Shown here: positions 3,001 to 54,141 of the stretch, one piece after another
Layout: each line of letters opens with the position of its first letter
Numbering within the stretch: position 1 is the first letter of the stretch
Source: Saccharomycopsis phalli
Lineage: Eukaryota > Ascomycota > Saccharomycetes > Ascoideales > Saccharomycopsidaceae
Length of the DNA: 64,000 bases
Assembly (NCBI GenBank): GCA_020342235.1
Contig: CP073216.1
Span: 806,001-870,000 of the forward strand
Reading direction: 5' to 3'
Program-made: the position numbers and the translations under genes
The notes under the pieces: generated by a model
Databases searched by the model: none
What the model saw: the letters and a program-made list of their open reading frames with translations, nothing else
Told to the model about the DNA's origin: nothing

Positions 3001-3155
3001 TCACTCAACTGCTCATACTTGCAAAGACCATTAAACTCATCTCGCAATGGAGCCGAATTCGATGGAATATCCAAGGTCCGCACTTTGTGTTTGCCCCACC
3101 TTACATTGGTGGTCTCTCTCAACACATTGATAATTTCCCCAGAAGATTCACCCAT
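1..3155 (-). CDS. NUP120: Nucleoporin Nup120, 3' end outside the window
   Basis: Nup120 (Nup160 family) is a scaffold of the Y-shaped Nup84 complex of the nuclear pore, needed for pore assembly and mRNA export. The frame is open from the ATG at 3155-3153 to the window edge, about 1050 codons. The S. cerevisiae protein is about 1040 residues, so only a little is missing. The N-terminal half looks like a beta-propeller, with a blade-like SLNRKLKVWSISTG. The C-terminal part is helical and has the family-type stretch GDYNEQHYMTFFDIALSLQD followed by GDLRGACESLYQY. It is divergent from the snoRNA host gene. A CACGTG at 3199-3204 lies between them. Assignment is from family memory and is fairly secure; the C-terminus is not seen. 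Confidence 0.88.
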   Translation of the reverse strand, partial: MGESSGEIINVLRETTNVRWGKHKVRTLDIPSNSAPLRDEFNGLCKYEQLSEDPEKYFNRNLSGDSGILEVLNWSFEAISWMVSQDRRVLTLRPVSFSTNESTSWIQVQFPEEIRDNCYGFLVDENTKLVVVDLITVSGILVTLSFDYTQDFYTSAAASVESWCYFSTPYNFEIREPQYVHSISSGKLLVFFKDGGIIYGEREVFNSDLSMSIFSDTSFISSAFGKFGRFLPLRYSADYDEDESNYNLPHGCTLKTNLDSFVINEEILVTVSLNRKLKVWSISTGSLVAEQKLGDKSAELGDKLIGDGRPVCLLSALFHDQSKNVKTALEEYFFLSYLPVGTGQFKLWKLTVKDTVEIHDLGPQFEYLPQIPGSNSIWLVKDFKLLGSTFLLRDIYEKKPWMNVAVLLKSSTSSVYQLLTIFEDGLSVWAKSNLNTQILADTHPSNFPYDNSQGDSEFYMEKIVDSGAYSELSIETALALFEKKYFASGSGIPIDLPYREKIPVLLGKIVSSQEDIAKQWRNFESLCQEFTKLENESLSLGYVSNKAIVGKKYGFSVLRINEAIELLYLNRSKSTEVSLLSTPGSPEFDFKKRCGVSSDSDMLRFIHVISSFKYSIPTDILIAVRTRLAEPVSGSVVKYSRDIFDDCLAGKISETTLQTLMSELNDIPEAFKTIGYLIEYPRSVGLATASDSEVGQLKKDFDLAVFRQLLVIFDDVYYDLLLITFILNFSEETMLVILNGAISIYKRIQLAFFALSDAKDTCLLETVARGHFGGNPGSLFHFINDDKFVYAVANELLRRNDGDTVRNRLFAHFSKTSTAPFYKLLEAYTYLCTGVSGKARSQFVAISEEVIGYKATSSELNVVSEISDLVQTTNLADYYHLLAVQFSKAGYYSDALALVKLGLKGDYNEQHYMTFFDIALSLQDFDEAFSALSKVQPKDLQARYKTLRGFVNGISQSNDLKYLTTYSFSSSDSTSIDRILFNNGNSIDFNFKPSLSLAVINQRLDSALKYFKILYSWRLNHGDLRGACESLYQYINKYSYLESHLKKNLSL

Positions 3156-3198
3156 GGTTTCTTCTCTCGACTAGTTGCAAACAAACAAATTAACGGGT

Positions 3199-3204
3199 CA
3201 CGTG
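3199..3204. promoter_or_regulatory. CACGTG motif in the NUP120 / snoRNA-host divergent promoter
   Basis: A perfect E-box (GGTCACGTGC context) lies 44 bp upstream of the NUP120 ATG and about 80 bp before the first 5' splice site of the snoRNA host gene. In yeasts this is the classic Cbf1 site. Its use here is inferred. Confidence 0.45.
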
Positions 3205-3317
3205 CATGCGTGTTTATTTACCCGCCTTCCCAAAAATTTTCCTATAAAGTCGGCGATTTGGTGCTCAATATTATCAGTGCAAAGTGTATGTGCAATTGGT
3301 TTATATCTTCATTGGCT

Positions 3318-3395
3318 CATTGTGATGACCAAAAATGATTTTACAAACTAGAGTTTCTGAATTTTAATGATTAGAAACCATTGATTGCTGAATCT
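3318..3395 (+). ncRNA. SNR78: Box C/D snoRNA snR78 (25S U2421 2'-O-methylation guide)
   Basis: Box C GTGATGA lies at 3322-3328, box D' CTGA at 3357-3360 and box D CTGA at 3388-3391. The guide CAAACTAGAGT before D' pairs with 11 nt of 25S rRNA (ACUCUAGUUUG). The fifth nucleotide upstream of D' falls on the U that is yeast position 2421, by my count from remembered 25S sequence. It sits in intron 1 of the host. Confidence 0.88.
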
Positions 3396-3486
3396 ACCAA
3401 TGATGTATATGTCATTTGAAGCCGACTAACAATAGTGAAATGTTTGGCTCTTGTGCATGTTAAAGTAAGTACAATTTTTCATGGAT

Positions 3487-3576
3487 TGGTTTAGTGATGA
3501 AGAAAAATTTACGTTGGAATTACCGACTGAATCTTCTATGTCGACAAATATTTTTGGCACCTCTTCTGAATAACCA
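3487..3576 (+). ncRNA. SNR77: Box C/D snoRNA snR77, copy 1 (18S U578 guide)
   Basis: Box C GTGATGA is at 3494-3500, D' CTGA at 3527-3530 and D CTGA at 3566-3569. A terminal stem TGGTT/AACCA closes it (3487-3491 with 3572-3576). The guide GTTGGAATTACCG pairs over 13 positions, one of them G-U, with 18S CGGUAAUUCCAGC. The D'+5 rule selects U578. It lies in intron 2. A near-identical second copy follows in the next intron. Confidence 0.9.
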
Positions 3577-3659
3577 CTCAATTGTTTAATTGAATTAACT
3601 AACATTTAGTAAATGGTATGTTTCTTATTGGTATCTTGGTAGTGAATTGGATATCCCAT

Positions 3660-3745
3660 CTAGGTGATGAAGAAAATTTTACGTTGGAATTACCGACTGA
3701 ATTATCTGTGTCGACAAAAATTTTTGGCACCTCTTCTGATTTTCA
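3660..3745 (+). ncRNA. SNR77: Box C/D snoRNA snR77, copy 2 (18S U578 guide)
   Basis: Box C is at 3664-3670, D' at 3697-3700 and D at 3736-3739. The guide is the same GTTGGAATTACCG as in copy 1. From box C to box D the two copies differ at only a few positions, while the flanking intron sequence is unrelated apart from splice signals. The obvious TGGTT/AACCA terminal stem of copy 1 is not present here. Whether both copies are processed cannot be told from sequence. Confidence 0.88.
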
Positions 3746-3811
3746 TTGCAAGATATTGGCGTTTTTATATGGCTGTGCTAACATCTAGGTACGTGTGCTT
3801 ACTCAAGTAAT

Positions 3812-3898
3812 CTCATGTGATGATCAATAGCACTGGGCACTGAATTCAAATGAGTGACAAGTGTTTTGGGCCTCAGAAACCCTATTTTCCTGACCTTT
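3812..3898 (+). ncRNA. SNR76: Box C/D snoRNA snR76 (25S C2197 guide)
   Basis: Box C GTGATGA is at 3817-3823, D' CTGA at 3840-3843, a C'-like TGAGTGA at 3851 and D CTGA at 3890-3893. The guide AGCACTGGGCA pairs with 25S UGCCCAGUGCU. The D'+5 nucleotide selects the third C, which counts to C2197 when numbered back from U2421. Confidence 0.88.
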
Positions 3899-3992
3899 GG
3901 ATTACACCTTGGTACAAAGTCAGTATTAACTCATAGCAATTAGTGAGTAGTTTATGGTAAAGTACGTTTGCATTTTCTGCACGGATTCATAG

Positions 3993-4083
3993 ATTTAGTG
4001 ATGATTTATTTAGATGACGAGTCAGACGGGATTCCCGATGATGACACCATCTTTTAATAACCATTCATGCATTTCTGAACATT
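3993..4083 (+). ncRNA. SNR75: Box C/D snoRNA snR75 (25S G2288 guide)
   Basis: Box C GTGATGA is at 3998-4004, a degenerate D' CAGA at 4023-4026, C' GATGATGA near 4037 and D CTGA at 4075-4078. The guide TTAGATGACGAG pairs with 25S CUCGUCAUCUAA (12 nt). With CAGA taken as D', the +5 rule selects G2288. Confidence 0.85.
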
Positions 4084-4131
4084 TATGATCAGCAGCATTT
4101 GAACCAAAACTAACAGTAGATTTGGGATATT

Positions 4132-4207
4132 TCCAGAGATGAAATAAAAATTTTGACAAGCATATGTCTGATTTTTATGAAGATGCAAATTTTTATGTCT
4201 GATGGTG
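4132..4207 (+). ncRNA. SNR74: Box C/D snoRNA snR74 (18S A28 guide)
   Basis: The C box is AGATGAA (4137-4143), slightly off consensus. D' CTGA is at 4168-4171 and D CTGA at 4199-4202. The guide GACAAGCATATG pairs with 18S CAUAUGCUUGUC, and D'+5 selects A28. It is preceded by CTAACAG at 4110-4116, but no 5' splice site lies between that and the snoRNA. Confidence 0.85.
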
Positions 4208-4276
4208 TATATTTCTTGTTTTTTTTTTACAAGACTTGACTAACATTAAGGTAAGTTTTTGTTTGTAAAGGTGATT

Positions 4277-4374
4277 AGTATATGATGATTTTTCCAACTC
4301 ACGACGGTCAACTGTGTTTGATTATTCAAACTTTGATGATATTCGCCTGTGACAAGGCCCGGATCCTGAAACTA
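4277..4374 (+). ncRNA. SNR73: Box C/D snoRNA snR73 (25S C2959 guide)
   Basis: Box C ATGATGA is at 4282-4288, a D'-like CTGT at 4312-4315, C' TGATGA at 4334-4339 and D CTGA at 4366-4369. The guide CTCACGACGGTC pairs with 25S GACCGUCGUGAG near the A-loop. Using CTGT as D', the +5 position is C2959. Confidence 0.83.
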
Positions 4375-4434
4375 TTTGCTAAGATGTGTTTGAAGAAGAC
4401 TAACATATAGAGTATGTATTGGATTGTATGAATA

Positions 4435-4517
4435 TAGTTATGATGACAAGTAATACTTTTTCAGGACCACGATGACTGTACTAGTATTAATTCGATTTGC
4501 ATGTCAGTCTGAACGAC
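4435..4517 (+). ncRNA. SNR72: Box C/D snoRNA snR72 (25S A876 guide)
   Basis: Box C ATGATGA is at 4440-4446 and CTGA at 4509-4512. The guide CGATTTGCATGTCAG just upstream pairs over 15 positions (one G-U) with 25S CUGACGUGCAAAUCG. The +5 nucleotide selects the A that is position 876. It is the last snoRNA of the host, followed by the branch/3' splice site ACTAACAG at 4544-4551. Confidence 0.85.
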
Positions 4518-4796
4518 TATTGATGACGAATAATGGGGAGAGTACTAACAGATACAGAGTGAATATATACATACATATATGGCTGTAAGCAATACACTTG
4601 CACACCTATCCTAATAAAAACCAAATTGATCTTGCTATATATACGAAACTTTAATGGCATGTGTGGATTTGAATTTCTCGTAATTGATGTTTCTTTTCAT
4701 GTTGTTGTTTACATCATTAGCCCCATTTAATCACATGGCGGTGACTTTTCACGGGCTGGAATTTGCATTTTGCATGAATGAGTTCCGTGAAGGATT

Positions 4797-5159
4797 TCAT
4801 TCTTGAATCAGCAGGAGTCGAGGCTGTTGATTTGGATGGGATGTTTCTCCCGAGAGCCGTTCAAACTGCCACTCTAATTTTTTGAAGGACTCCATTTCTT
4901 GTGAGATCAATTGCAAGCCGGTTTCCTCGTCCTCGGAGGAGATTTGTGGTTTTGAGAAATATCTGTGCATGATATTTAAGATATTTATATACGAGGACAA
5001 ATACTTGATCTCCGAGTCTATCAACTGCCGTTGGTGGGACTCGAGATCGGGTCTCAAAGACAGGGTAAGCGATGCCAAGTAGAGCTGGATCAGGGCGACG
5101 GAGCTTGTGTCGCAGCGAGTCAACAGCAAGTTTGGATGGACCATGAATATCGATACCAT
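4797..5159 (-). CDS. Small conserved-looking protein of unknown function
   Basis: I do not recognise this 120-residue product. The start is the ATG at 5159; the in-frame extension upstream begins at TTG and is not credible. An ATG at 5144 is an alternative. The first two thirds look helical and leucine rich (for example SVALIQLYLASLTLSLRP), then comes an acidic stretch (SSEDEETG) and another amphipathic helix. No transmembrane segment is clear. It is divergent from UTP6, 162 bp between ATGs, so the two could share a promoter. Codon choice resembles the neighbours, which supports a real gene. It may be a small subunit of a coiled-coil complex; this is a guess. Confidence 0.6.
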   Translation of the reverse strand: MVSIFMVHPNLLLTRCDTSSVALIQLYLASLTLSLRPDLESHQRQLIDSEIKYLSSYINILNIMHRYFSKPQISSEDEETGLQLISQEMESFKKLEWQFERLSGETSHPNQQPRLLLIQE

Positions 5160-8227: not shown

Positions 8228-8470
8228 TGGAGTGGTATGGAAATATTACCTGGATTGAGTATCACTATTCGTATAACAATACTACTTGGATCAGTAGCAT
8301 TACTTGGACAATATTACCTGGATCAGTAGCATTACTTGGACAATATTACCTGGATTAGTAGCATTGGACAATATTACCTGTATTGAGTAGCACTGTTTGT
8401 ATGGCAATATTACTGGATTGCGTAGCATTGGACAATATTACTGGATTGCGTAGCATTGTACAATATTACA
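8228..8470 (+). repeat. Minisatellite, about 30-bp GGACAATATTACCTGGATYAGTAGCATT units
   Basis: Seven or eight degenerate units sharing CAATATTAC and GTAGCATT run up to the left edge of the adjacent repeat element. Confidence 0.8.
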
Positions 8471-47380: not shown

Positions 47381-48114
47381 GTTTCACCCTCGAAATATTT
47401 CACATATGTACCCACATGCTGGTGCTGTATGCCACATCCATTTTTATTAAACGGTATTTTCAACTTGTAGGAAATGCTGTAGATTATTACTGTGATTGAG
47501 TTGTATGTATAAGTTGAGAGAAGTTGGTTGACGAGCTGAATGAAGTGATGTGGTAATGGATGATTGGTGGAATTATCAAGAAAAATTATCAATTGGATAA
47601 TTGATGAATTTATTATCAATGGTACATTTAGTAAAATTTTCTCCATTTATTTTTGAAATTCACCAACTCTGTACTAAAAAATTAAACCAATTTACGTATT
47701 CAATCATCAATTCTACATATTCAATAATCTATTCTACATATTCAATCATCAATTCTATTGTTAATACTATTCAAACTAATTATATTCAGAACATGGTTTT
47801 AATCATTCTAGTTCATGATTAGCATGAAATATATTTCATTCATCAATATATAATATGCTCAGCGCACTTACCCTAAACGTTAGTCCCTCCCTAAAAAAAA
47901 CAACAAATATTATCATCAGAATTTTCAGTGTGTATGGTCAATCAACACATTATGATTCAGCCTGGGGCGACAACGTAGGTCATCATAATAATATTCCAAT
48001 TCGCTTTACTTACTGTATAACTTGAAGTGATAAACATTTTCACATCCAATCGCGCTTTTATGTTGAGGTTACCCGGCCACAAGCATAATCCCGCGCCAAT
48101 CTCATCTCTTCAAC
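47381..48114. other. AT-rich CNXE/RAD30 divergent spacer
   Basis: No gene. A short repeat (ATTCTACATATTCAATCATCA, about three units) lies at 47690-47760. It presumably holds both promoters. Confidence 0.55.
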
Positions 48115-52239: not shown

Positions 52240-54141
52240 CTATTTTTTCCTGCTTTCGTTTTCTAATGAGAGCTTGTAGATTTTATCGAACGTCATGTCC
52301 CGGAAGACGTTGCAATTCTCATAAGGACCGTAGGGAGACTGGACAAACAAGAGATGTAGTTTATGCACAGCACTACAAAACTGCTTCTCTTCCAAAAGCC
52401 TTGTAAGGTTGTGGGGATCCATCTCCAGGTAGGCAAAGTTTTCTTGGTCAAAGTAGCCTGGGTTTTCCGACTGGGCAGTGTTGAGAAGTGAGCTCACCGA
52501 GAAGGAGTGTCTTCTTTCGGGCTGGGAGGAAGCATCGTTTTTATTATTCAAGAGCGAGGAGATTGAAACGGAAGTGGTTCTTGTAGGAGTAGAAGGGGTC
52601 TCTTCCTTTTTGGGAGCTACCACCGGCGACCGTTCTGCCTTTTCTCGGCGTAGAAGCTCTCTGTAGATGAAATCGTGCTTGAGCAGGGCCTGGATGAGGC
52701 TCTCTGGTTTCAAGCTGTAGCTGAATTTGGTGTTTGACAAGATCTCTTGCGAGATTACCGATTCTATGTGGCCGCCAAACGAGTTTTGAATGACCTCGTC
52801 GTGGTTGATGCTACTGAGCAACGAGTCGAATATCAGGTCAGGATCCAGATCCGGCCTTCCGTCTGCGGGAATGTCAGAGGTGAAATTACTTGCAAACTTT
52901 GAGAGTTCGTCACTAGGTATGCATGGCCACAGGTCCAGAAGTATGATGATGATGTCACTGACTGCAGGCGACAAGGATTTGAGTATGATTTTAGGAAAGT
53001 CAAGGGAGAGAGATTCGAGGCCTAGCTGGCGGATGGTAGAGATGCTCCTGACGGTGTCTACCAAGTTCTGTGCGACTTTAACTCTGAAGAGTTTCTGCAA
53101 ATATTCGACGGGCAGCATTAATTGCCCGCGGTGCTTTTGGTATACATCATCCAGGAGAATCGCAAGGGTAATATTATCGGGGACAGCGGTATCAGGGACG
53201 TTGTGGTAGTGCGACTCGTCGCAAATGACCACGAAGTTTGTGTCGCTGCCGTGGTAATCTGCGAGTTCTTTTGCAAAACCCTGGAGATAGGACTCAAAGT
53301 GGGTCTGTGAAGTCCAACCTGACGAATTGTAGTAGTAGTTTGAGGTGTTCCTGACAACCAGCAATTTCTTTGCGGTCCTGTGATGATTAATAAACGCGAT
53401 TTTGCACTTGTGTGAGCCGTGGAAGTTGTGGCACAACACCACGGTGATGCGATTGTCCAAGATGCCGTCTTCGAGGTCGTCCAAGTAGTCGTGGGCCATG
53501 TAGAGGTGCTCGTTTTTTTCGTCGAGCAAATTACAGACGAGAGATGCCTCTGTGAGGTTGTAGATGTGCCTGGAGTCGGTGTCGTTGAAGAGTGTCTGAA
53601 GGTGGGCCAAGTCGCGCACGTAGAGCTGCTTAGTGGCGGACTTGACGTATGAGTTGATTTCGTTTTTTTTGCTGGGCAATTTGTAGAGGCGTTTTATCTT
53701 GTCGATGATGTTGTCGATGGAGTCTTCCTCATCGCTGCAGTGGAACTCCTCGCAAAACTGCTGGAACTTTTTGACGACCAAATCGATGGAGACGGGGACG
53801 TCGAACAGAAGGGCAATGTCGATGTACTTGACCAAGGCCTCGAAGATCTCTTCGCCGCGGAAGTTGAGTACACGATAGCTGTTTTTAATTCTCTCTGAGA
53901 CCTCTGCGTTGGCGATCATTCCGGCGTATTGCTTTGCCAACTTTAGTATGATGGGGTTTTTCTTCCAGCGGTAGATGTTACGGCGATACTGTATGGTGAA
54001 GTTCAATTCTTTCTTGGCCCAGGCGATGATCTCTAGATCTTTTTTCCCTTTCAATTTCTCAGCAACCACTTTCGCCTTCATGTCGTAGCTGCCAATCTTG
54101 ACAGACTGGGGCTTGGCACTGCTTGCTTTGTTGGAGATCAT
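52240..54141 (-). CDS. Transposase-derived (CENP-B/pogo-type) DNA-binding protein, PDC2-like
   Basis: The product is 633 residues from the ATG at 54141. Order: a psq/CENP-B-like helix-turn-helix (about 15-60, LKGKKDLEIIAWAKKELNFT ... NIYRWKK). A second Tc5/CENP-B type helix-turn-helix follows (about 85-150, GEEIFEALVKYIDIALL), then a DDE_1-type fold (RITVVLCHNFHGSHKCKIAF, WTSQTHFESYLQGFAKELAD, NFVVICDESHYHN). In S. cerevisiae the same architecture occurs in Pdc2, an activator of pyruvate decarboxylase and thiamine genes. The region matching Pdc2 TLDEAFL reads NLTEASL, so the first acidic residue is lost; the second Asp (ICDESHYH) remains and the third is not evident. It is therefore a host regulator, not an active transposase. 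It could instead be another CENP-B-like paralogue. Confidence 0.75.
   Translation of the reverse strand: MISNKASSAKPQSVKIGSYDMKAKVVAEKLKGKKDLEIIAWAKKELNFTIQYRRNIYRWKKNPIILKLAKQYAGMIANAEVSERIKNSYRVLNFRGEEIFEALVKYIDIALLFDVPVSIDLVVKKFQQFCEEFHCSDEEDSIDNIIDKIKRLYKLPSKKNEINSYVKSATKQLYVRDLAHLQTLFNDTDSRHIYNLTEASLVCNLLDEKNEHLYMAHDYLDDLEDGILDNRITVVLCHNFHGSHKCKIAFINHHRTAKKLLVVRNTSNYYYNSSGWTSQTHFESYLQGFAKELADYHGSDTNFVVICDESHYHNVPDTAVPDNITLAILLDDVYQKHRGQLMLPVEYLQKLFRVKVAQNLVDTVRSISTIRQLGLESLSLDFPKIILKSLSPAVSDIIIILLDLWPCIPSDELSKFASNFTSDIPADGRPDLDPDLIFDSLLSSINHDEVIQNSFGGHIESVISQEILSNTKFSYSLKPESLIQALLKHDFIYRELLRREKAERSPVVAPKKEETPSTPTRTTSVSISSLLNNKNDASSQPERRHSFSVSSLLNTAQSENPGYFDQENFAYLEMDPHNLTRLLEEKQFCSAVHKLHLLFVQSPYGPYENCNVFRDMTFDKIYKLSLENESRKK

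What the first reader, a model, noticed from the sequence alone, without database searches (positions are those of the whole stretch)
3787..4412. Zero-length exons: 3' and 5' splice sites fused back to back
At 3787-3794 the sequence is CTAACATCTAG followed at once by GTACGT. At 4249-4256 CTAACATTAAG is followed at once by GTAAGT. At 4409-4417 CATATAG, one A, then GTATGT. The first two look like recursive (ratchet) splice points: after the upstream intron is removed a 5' splice site is regenerated with no exon in between. In a noncoding host whose only cargo is intronic snoRNAs, exons can shrink to nothing. Recursive splicing is known from long animal introns; I know of no yeast case with 0-nt exons.
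Basis: partly seen in the sequence, partly recalled or inferred. Interest (0 to 1): 0.85.

Follow-up and report, generated by a model that had tools for sequence, protein, structure and literature searches.

The report
Yeast snoRNA host with vanished exons
A non-coding yeast gene that seems to serve only to deliver small guide RNAs from its introns has lost nearly all of its exons, at one or two places apparently down to no letters at all, a pattern already described in other yeasts and found here in a further branch of the yeast tree.

Summary
The letters are as described: CTAACATCTAG|GTACGT (3778-3794), CTAACATTAAG|GTAAGT (4240-4256), CTAACATATAG|A|GTATGT (4400-4417). They lie in the conserved fungal C/D snoRNA cluster I (snR78, two snR77 copies, 76, 75, 74, 73, 72), built of GTANGT-snoRNA-CTAAC-AG units also found elsewhere in this genome. 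Predicted internal exons are 29, 6, 0, 25, 0 and 1 nt. No shuffle of 20,000 gave two fused sites, though the bare motif is not enriched genome-wide. Other hosts here are as compact: 1 nt between snR67 and a weak snR53 match, 3 and 3 nt in cluster III. The 3788/3789 junction is well supported; 4250/4251 is uncertain (AAG acceptor; snR74 may be exonic). The claim that no yeast case is known is wrong: zero-length exons and recursive splicing are reported for snoRNA clusters II and III of Candida and Debaryomyces (PMC5033589), and 61 exon losses in fungal snoRNA clusters (PMC3596301). New member of a known kind, in a Saccharomycopsis-like yeast. Without RNA data, use and order of the sites are inferred.

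The parts
3286..3435 (+). Intron 1, GTATGT...CTAACAATAG, carries snR78 (3318-3393)
   Evidence: Rfam RF01176 67.9 bits, above gathering; splice motifs
3436..3464 (+). Predicted exon of 29 nt
   Evidence: between 3' and 5' splice motifs
3465..3609 (+). Intron 2, GTAAGT...CTAACATTTAG, carries snR77 copy a (3488-3577)
   Evidence: Rfam RF01178 35.4 bits, E 1.6e-4, below gathering 52
3610..3615 (+). Predicted exon of 6 nt (TAAATG)
3616..3788 (+). Intron 3, GTATGT...CTAACATCTAG, carries snR77 copy b (3662-3735)
   Evidence: Rfam RF01178 34.0 bits, E 3.7e-4, below gathering; 71 of 76 bases from box C to box D equal copy a
3778..3794 (+). Zero-length exon 1: CTAACATCTAG|GTACGT, junction 3788/3789
   Evidence: snoRNA units on both sides
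3789..3936 (+). Intron 4, GTACGT...ATTAACTCATAG, carries snR76 (3812-3900)
   Evidence: Rfam RF01209 53.8 bits (gathering 55), E 1.1e-10
3937..3961 (+). Predicted exon of 25 nt
3962..4119 (+). Intron 5, GTACGT...CTAACAGTAG, carries snR75 (3996-4080); alternatively the intron runs on to 4250 with snR74 too
   Evidence: Rfam RF01185 74.9 bits; unit of 158 nt
4131..4206 (+). snR74 (SNORD27 model), either exonic (exon 4120-4250) or second snoRNA of intron 3962-4250
   Evidence: Rfam RF00086 43.4 bits (gathering 52), E 6.7e-6; snR74 and U27 share a row of the table passage seen
4240..4256 (+). Possible zero-length exon 2: CTAACATTAAG|GTAAGT, junction 4250/4251
   Evidence: AAG acceptor, also read at two other snoRNA-type introns of this genome
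4251..4410 (+). Intron 6, GTAAGT...CTAACATATAG, carries snR73 (4278-4371)
   Evidence: Rfam RF01207 67.9 bits
4411..4411 (+). Predicted 1-nt exon (A)
   Evidence: CTAACATATAG|A|GTATGT
4412..4557 (+). Intron 7, GTATGT...TACTAACAGATACAG, carries the presumed snR72 (4434-4520)
   Evidence: Rfam RF00343 snoZ122 32.2 bits (gathering 38), E 0.025; called snR72 by its place in the cluster
47755..48013 (-). Second compact snoRNA host in the window: GTAAGT (48013) - snR67 (47990-47914) - CTAACGTTTAG - 1-nt exon G - GTAAGT (47871) - snR53-like (47847-47784) - TTAACAATAG
   Evidence: snR67 53.1 bits (gathering 55), snR53 28.4 bits (gathering 70, E 0.14, weak)

Best explanation
This is the snR78-snR72 C/D snoRNA host transcript (fungal cluster I) of a yeast related to Saccharomycopsis. 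Because only the introns carry cargo, the exons are free to erode. Each intron is a compact unit: 5' splice site, 22-46 nt to the snoRNA, one snoRNA, 22-36 nt to the branch point, and a 3' splice site ending 5-8 nt after CTAAC or TTAAC. At 3788/3789 the exon between the snR77b and snR76 introns is gone altogether, and at 4411 one base is left. The two abutting introns are most likely removed one after the other, because the upstream branch point lies within about 10 nt of the next 5' splice site, so two spliceosomes could hardly sit there at once (inferred). If the upstream intron goes first, TAAATG joins GTACGT and a 5' splice site is regenerated (recursive splicing). If the downstream one goes first, CTAACATCTAG stays intact. 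Both orders are possible on paper, so neither is forced. Each lariat is then debranched and trimmed to one snoRNA (established pathway, recalled, not tested here). Shown: anatomy, similar units elsewhere, local significance. Inferred: use of the sites, order, and zero length in the RNA.
For: Rfam places the snoRNAs in cluster I order (order in PMC3596301). Seven GTANGT and seven CTAAC..AG against shuffle means of 1.3 and 0.3; two fused sites in 0 of 20,000 shuffles. No ATG-started ORF of 60 aa or more lies between 3156 and 4796. A search for GTANGT-box C-box D gave 41 hits (17 backwards); of the 30 with loci, 11 outside this window complete the unit with a branch point and AG, 133-163 nt long; Rfam names a snoRNA in 6 of the 11 (snR64, snR60, snR54 and snR51 above their cut-offs; snR47 and snR39 just below). 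Comparable tiny exons occur in the same genome: 1 nt between snR67 and a weak snR53 match, 3 and 3 nt in cluster III with snR41 and snR51. Published splicing data show the same kind of thing in other yeasts (PMC5033589; PMC3596301).
Against: No RNA data. The bare motif is not enriched genome-wide (5 hits; 17 backwards). No related locus could be fetched to test conservation of the fused sites (searches gave 0 matches in collections not meant to hold fungi). The second site has an AAG acceptor, and no GTANGT lies between the snR75 acceptor (4119) and snR74. Cluster II of this genome shows no GTANGT or CTAAC between about 1101 and 1750 of L048, so intronic hosting is not general here. In C. parapsilosis cluster II the zero-exon (recursive) route is not the main one.
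Confidence: 0.75

Rival explanations
1. Second site only: snR74 is exonic. Intron 5 ends at 4119 (CTAACAGTAG), exon 4120-4250 (131 nt) carries snR74, and AAG|GTAAGT at 4250/4251 is just the 5' splice site of the snR73 intron. CTAACATTAAG is then a relic of a lost snR74 intron, or chance.
For: 3962-4119 is a complete unit of normal length (158 nt); no GTANGT lies between 4119 and snR74; AAG is the acceptor in only 3 of 24 listed snoRNA-type introns, this one included; in C. parapsilosis cluster I the acceptors contain TAG or CAG, the transcript carries both exonic and intronic snoRNAs, and five cluster I snoRNAs are intronic in Candida (PMC5033589).
Against: CTAAC at the usual spacing directly before a 5' splice site, with a run of 10 T upstream, much as the run of 8 T before the snR67 branch point. 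AAG acceptors are also read before a 3-nt exon in cluster III and in an intron with a weak snR58 match.
Confidence: 0.45
2. Skipping: each fused pair is passed over and one long intron with two or more snoRNAs (3616-3936; 3962-4410) is removed in one step.
For: Exon-skipped products of cluster I are reported in C. parapsilosis (as minor) and N. crassa (PMC5033589; PMC2780460 passages); that one donor may use several acceptors is left open for abutting introns (PMC3596301).
Against: Unused inner branch point, acceptor and donor should have decayed; instead they match the consensus at 3788/3789, and the introns on both sides (173 and 148 nt) are close to the length of the other units.
Confidence: 0.2
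3. Chance juxtaposition: the 3' splice sites are real but the GTANGT behind them are not used; the true donors lie a few bases downstream, leaving short exons.
For: Other GT donors follow (3793 GTGTGC, 3795 GTGCTT, 3807 GTAATC; 4265 GTAAAG and others). One other genome hit of the fused motif (L002) looks, by eye, like an ordinary acceptor of a coding gene whose exon merely begins GTACGT.
Against: None of these alternatives matches GTANGT, which stands at all seven intron starts of the cluster (the units elsewhere were sought by GTANGT and so do not count as independent support).
Confidence: 0.07
4. Nested splicing at the snR75-snR74 boundary: GTAGAT (4116-4121), overlapping the acceptor CTAACAGTAG, is the snR74 donor (exon of negative size).
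For: Nested exons of negative size are reported for cluster II in the C. parapsilosis group (PMC5033589); 4116-4250 would be 135 nt with one snoRNA, within the usual unit length.
Against: GTAGAT lacks the G at the fifth place found at the seven GTANGT of this cluster; only a sequence reading, no test.
Confidence: 0.08

Closest known systems
Zero-size and 1-nt exons with recursive or nested splicing in snoRNA clusters II and III of the C. parapsilosis group and D. hansenii (PMC5033589, section 7 read; PMC3596301, section 8 read)
   Same: Polycistronic C/D snoRNA host, intronic snoRNAs, internal exon of 0 or 1 nt, upstream splicing regenerates a donor.
   Different: Here the zero exon is in cluster I and in a Saccharomycopsis-like lineage; a second snR77 copy is present; no RNA data here.
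Exon compaction and loss in C. albicans snoRNA hosts (Mitrovich et al. 2010; not held, known here through citing papers)
   Same: Exons of non-coding hosts shrink while intronic snoRNAs stay.
   Different: Different species; details not checked in the paper itself.
Zero-nucleotide recursive splice sites (ratchet points) of long Drosophila and human introns (PMC5126111, passages)
   Same: Acceptor abuts donor with no exon between; donor regenerated after the first step.
   Different: There they subdivide long introns; here both halves are short cargo introns and the site looks like the remnant of a lost exon.
Stwintrons of fungi (PMC7138796, passages; PMC6616335, search listing only)
   Same: Complex introns removed by consecutive reactions.
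   Different: In a stwintron one intron interrupts a splice element of the other; here the two introns abut without overlap.

Membership tests
Fungal snoRNA cluster I host (snR78-77-76-75-74-73-72) | These C/D snoRNAs in this order on one strand | tested here: met
Fungal snoRNA cluster I host (snR78-77-76-75-74-73-72) | snoRNAs inside spliceosomal introns of a non-coding transcript | tested here: met
   by motif only: 7 GTANGT and 7 CTAAC..AG in step with the snoRNAs; no ATG-started ORF of 60 aa or more between 3156 and 4796. snR74 uncertain; no RNA
Zero-length-exon (recursive) splice site | Acceptor AG directly followed by a consensus donor with a branch point at normal distance | tested here: met
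   3778-3794 fully; 4240-4256 with an AAG acceptor
Zero-length-exon (recursive) splice site | Splicing intermediates or lariats that use both sites | not testable with these tools
   no RNA reads for this genome
Zero-length-exon (recursive) splice site | Conserved between related species | tested here: inconclusive
   no fungal genome collection; pattern scans of viral and prokaryote contigs gave 0
Stwintron | One intron lies inside a splice element of another | tested here: not met
   at 3788/3789 acceptor and donor abut without overlap

The most novel reading that the evidence does not exclude
Cluster I of this lineage has two true zero-nt exons and one 1-nt exon in a single seven-intron transcript, so that most of the host is intron joined to intron and maturation of snR77b, 76, 75/74, 73 and 72 depends on ordered, recursive splicing of short introns. 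It would be a natural test of how little exon the spliceosome needs.
Probability: 0.4. Interest if true: 0.45.

Novelty: new member of a known kind. Interest (0 to 1): 0.3.

Why it matters
It suggests that exon erosion in snoRNA hosts reaches zero in cluster I of a Saccharomycopsis-like yeast, outside the Candida and Debaryomyces examples read here, and that three different hosts of one genome have predicted exons of 0-3 nt. Such genes are convenient natural substrates for asking whether the spliceosome needs any exon between two introns, and in which order abutting introns are removed.

Tried and rejected
Rejected: that the motif alone is significant genome-wide. The fused motif has 5 hits against 17 backwards, the 1-nt version 10 against 19. 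Of the 3 other fused hits none has an Rfam snoRNA at E <= 0.5 (one weak microRNA-family match). Of the 10 one-nt hits, two are in the window's two hosts; the other 8 loci gave no snoRNA at E <= 0.01 (one tRNA).

Search for intronic C/D units by downstream branch point (30 hits, 37 backwards); 20 of the 30 loci were scanned and gave snR60, snR47 (just below its cut-off), snR38 and snR64, plus tRNAs. The unit pattern with the donor gave 41 hits against 17 backwards; 11 of the 41 got no locus, and those matches were not followed, though some overlap loci held from other calls.

AAG acceptors: GTANGT-N30-60-ACTAAC-N2-6-AAG gave 9 hits (36 backwards) and the TAG version 26 (49 backwards). Neither exceeds its control, and the controls have another composition, so this only says that AAG is the rarer of the two.

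Family searches of the whole genome for RF00472 (snR55), RF01180 (which proved to be snoR110; accession recalled wrongly) and RF00221 (SNORD43) gave nothing. snR55 was later seen weakly in L048 (33.4 bits, gathering 50), so absence from such a search means little. The middle snoRNA of cluster III, presumably snR70, was not matched by Rfam at E <= 1.

Relatives: no fungal genome collection is offered; scans with a snR75 stretch gave 0 in viral contigs and 0 in genome contigs. Mitrovich 2010 and Lopez and Seraphin 2000 are not held.

Full report
Observation. The three strings are in the sequence, a few bases from the stated starts: CTAACATCTAG 3778-3788 then GTACGT 3789-3794; CTAACATTAAG 4240-4250 then GTAAGT 4251-4256; CTAACATATAG 4400-4410, A4411, GTATGT 4412-4417. 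In 20,000 dinucleotide shuffles of 3151-4700 none had two zero-gap sites and four had one. The bare motif is not enriched over the whole 14.15 Mb genome: 5 hits, 2 of them here, against 17 for the pattern read backwards. What makes it non-random is that both hits fall within 479 bases, in step with a series of snoRNA introns.

What it is. Rfam finds snR78, snR75 and snR73 above their cut-offs and snR76, two snR77, SNORD27 (the snR74 equivalent, by the table passage of PMC2780460) and snoZ122 (at the place of snR72) below them. Order and strand are those of fungal snoRNA cluster I as given in PMC3596301. The cluster lies between the start of a minus-strand ORF (3155 down to the window's edge) and a 120-aa minus-strand ORF at 4797-5159, followed by a UTP6-like gene; no ATG-started ORF of 60 aa or more lies between 3156 and 4796. 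Seven GTANGT and seven CTAAC..AG stand in step with the snoRNAs; one further acceptor has TTAAC instead (3926-3936). Predicted introns are 150, 145, 173, 148, 158 (or 289), 160 and 146 nt, and internal exons 29, 6, 0, 25, 0 and 1 nt if the second fused site is used.

Context in the genome. The same unit was sought genome-wide: 41 hits against 17 backwards. Of the 30 loci given, 11 outside the window complete the unit with a branch point and AG, 133-163 nt long. Rfam names a snoRNA in six of these: snR64, snR60 and snR47 (60.5 bits, gathering 61), snR54, snR51 and snR39 (39.0 bits, gathering 40). Two more have weak matches (snR58 E 0.16, snR69 E 0.4), and three have no snoRNA match at the unit at E <= 1. 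snR38 has a similar but shorter unit. The snR54 and snR39 introns lie, by eye, in coding genes. Two further polycistronic hosts are as compact as cluster I. On the minus strand of this window snR67 and a weak snR53 match are separated by a single G. In L058, cluster III with snR41 and snR51 has predicted exons AAA and AAT. Cluster II (L048: snR61 and a weak snR55) has no GTANGT and no CTAAC between about 1101 and 1750 and looks exonic.

The second site. Its acceptor is AAG. Among 24 snoRNA-type introns that I listed, 17 end in TAG, 4 in CAG and 3 in AAG, the others being the second cluster III intron and an intron with a weak snR58 match. So AAG is unusual but not unique; in C. parapsilosis cluster I the acceptors contain TAG or CAG (PMC5033589). 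The other weakness is upstream: snR75 has a complete intron ending at 4119, and no GTANGT precedes snR74. Either snR74 is exonic and GTAAGT at 4251 ends a 131-nt exon, or snR75 and snR74 share the intron 3962-4250. In Candida five cluster I snoRNAs are intronic and others exonic (PMC5033589), which makes an exonic snR74 plausible. I put the second site at about even odds and the first at about 0.85.

Mechanism. At 3788/3789 neither order destroys a site: upstream first gives TAAATG|GTACGT, downstream first leaves CTAACATCTAG|CAATTAG. Because branch point, acceptor and next donor lie within 17 nt, I infer that both introns cannot be engaged at once, so they are removed in turn. Whether that is recursive in the strict sense needs RNA. 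In Luo et al. 42 spliced products of the abutting cluster III introns in Euascomycetes showed removal only from the 5' side, with one donor using several acceptors left open (PMC3596301, section 8).

Prior knowledge. PMC5033589 (section 7 read in full) reports for cluster II classical, nested (negative exon) and recursive (no exon) splicing, with RNA-seq showing the nested route to be the main one; a single-base exon in cluster III; and, after Luo et al., a zero exon between snR41 and snR70 in D. hansenii. PMC3596301 (section 8 read, other passages seen) reports at least 61 exon losses in clusters I-III over three ascomycete groups and credits its reference 15 (by context Mitrovich et al. 2010) with small or absent exons in the Candida clade and Y. 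lipolytica. Whether a zero exon in cluster I is among them stands in figures and supplements that I could not see. Searches listed no paper that I recognised as dealing with snoRNA hosts of this lineage; the Saccharomycopsis schoenii genome paper (PMC13148404, passages) does not contain the word snoRNA. The novelty claim of the finding therefore falls, and what remains is a new lineage and perhaps a new cluster.

Organism. The UTP6-like protein is nearest, among named proteins, to Saccharomycopsis crataegensis (58% identity over 91%), order Ascoideales. The species is not identified.

Two calls were added (66, 67). They corrected the description of the neighbouring ORFs and gave counts for the snR77 copies and for cluster II.

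Noticed in passing
window 3494-3569 and 3664-3739: Two snR77 copies in neighbouring introns, 71 of 76 bases equal from box C to box D, while the intron flanks have diverged: a duplication inside cluster I, with the zero-length exon behind the second copy.
   Followed up: partly
window 48013-47755, minus strand: A second compact snoRNA host (snR67, then a weak snR53 match) with a predicted 1-nt exon in the same window.
   Followed up: partly
L058 1138-1661: Cluster III (snR41, a middle C/D-like RNA, snR51) with two predicted 3-nt exons, one after an AAG acceptor.
   Followed up: partly
L048 1219-1579: Cluster II (snR61 and weak snR55) has no GTANGT or CTAAC around it, so it seems de-intronised here although intronic in Candida.
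   Followed up: partly
L002 1501-1517, minus strand: An acceptor CTAACTTTTAG of what looks by eye like a HUS1-like coding gene (name recalled, not tested), whose exon happens to begin GTACGT.
   Followed up: no
window 52240-54141, minus strand: ORF of 633 aa with a DDE_1 domain (E 5.5e-6), perhaps a domesticated transposase such as PDC2 (name recalled).
   Followed up: no
window 8230-8470: Imperfect tandem repeats of the type ACAATATTACCTGGATTAGTAGCATT in a stretch without a listed ORF of 150 aa or more (read).
   Followed up: no
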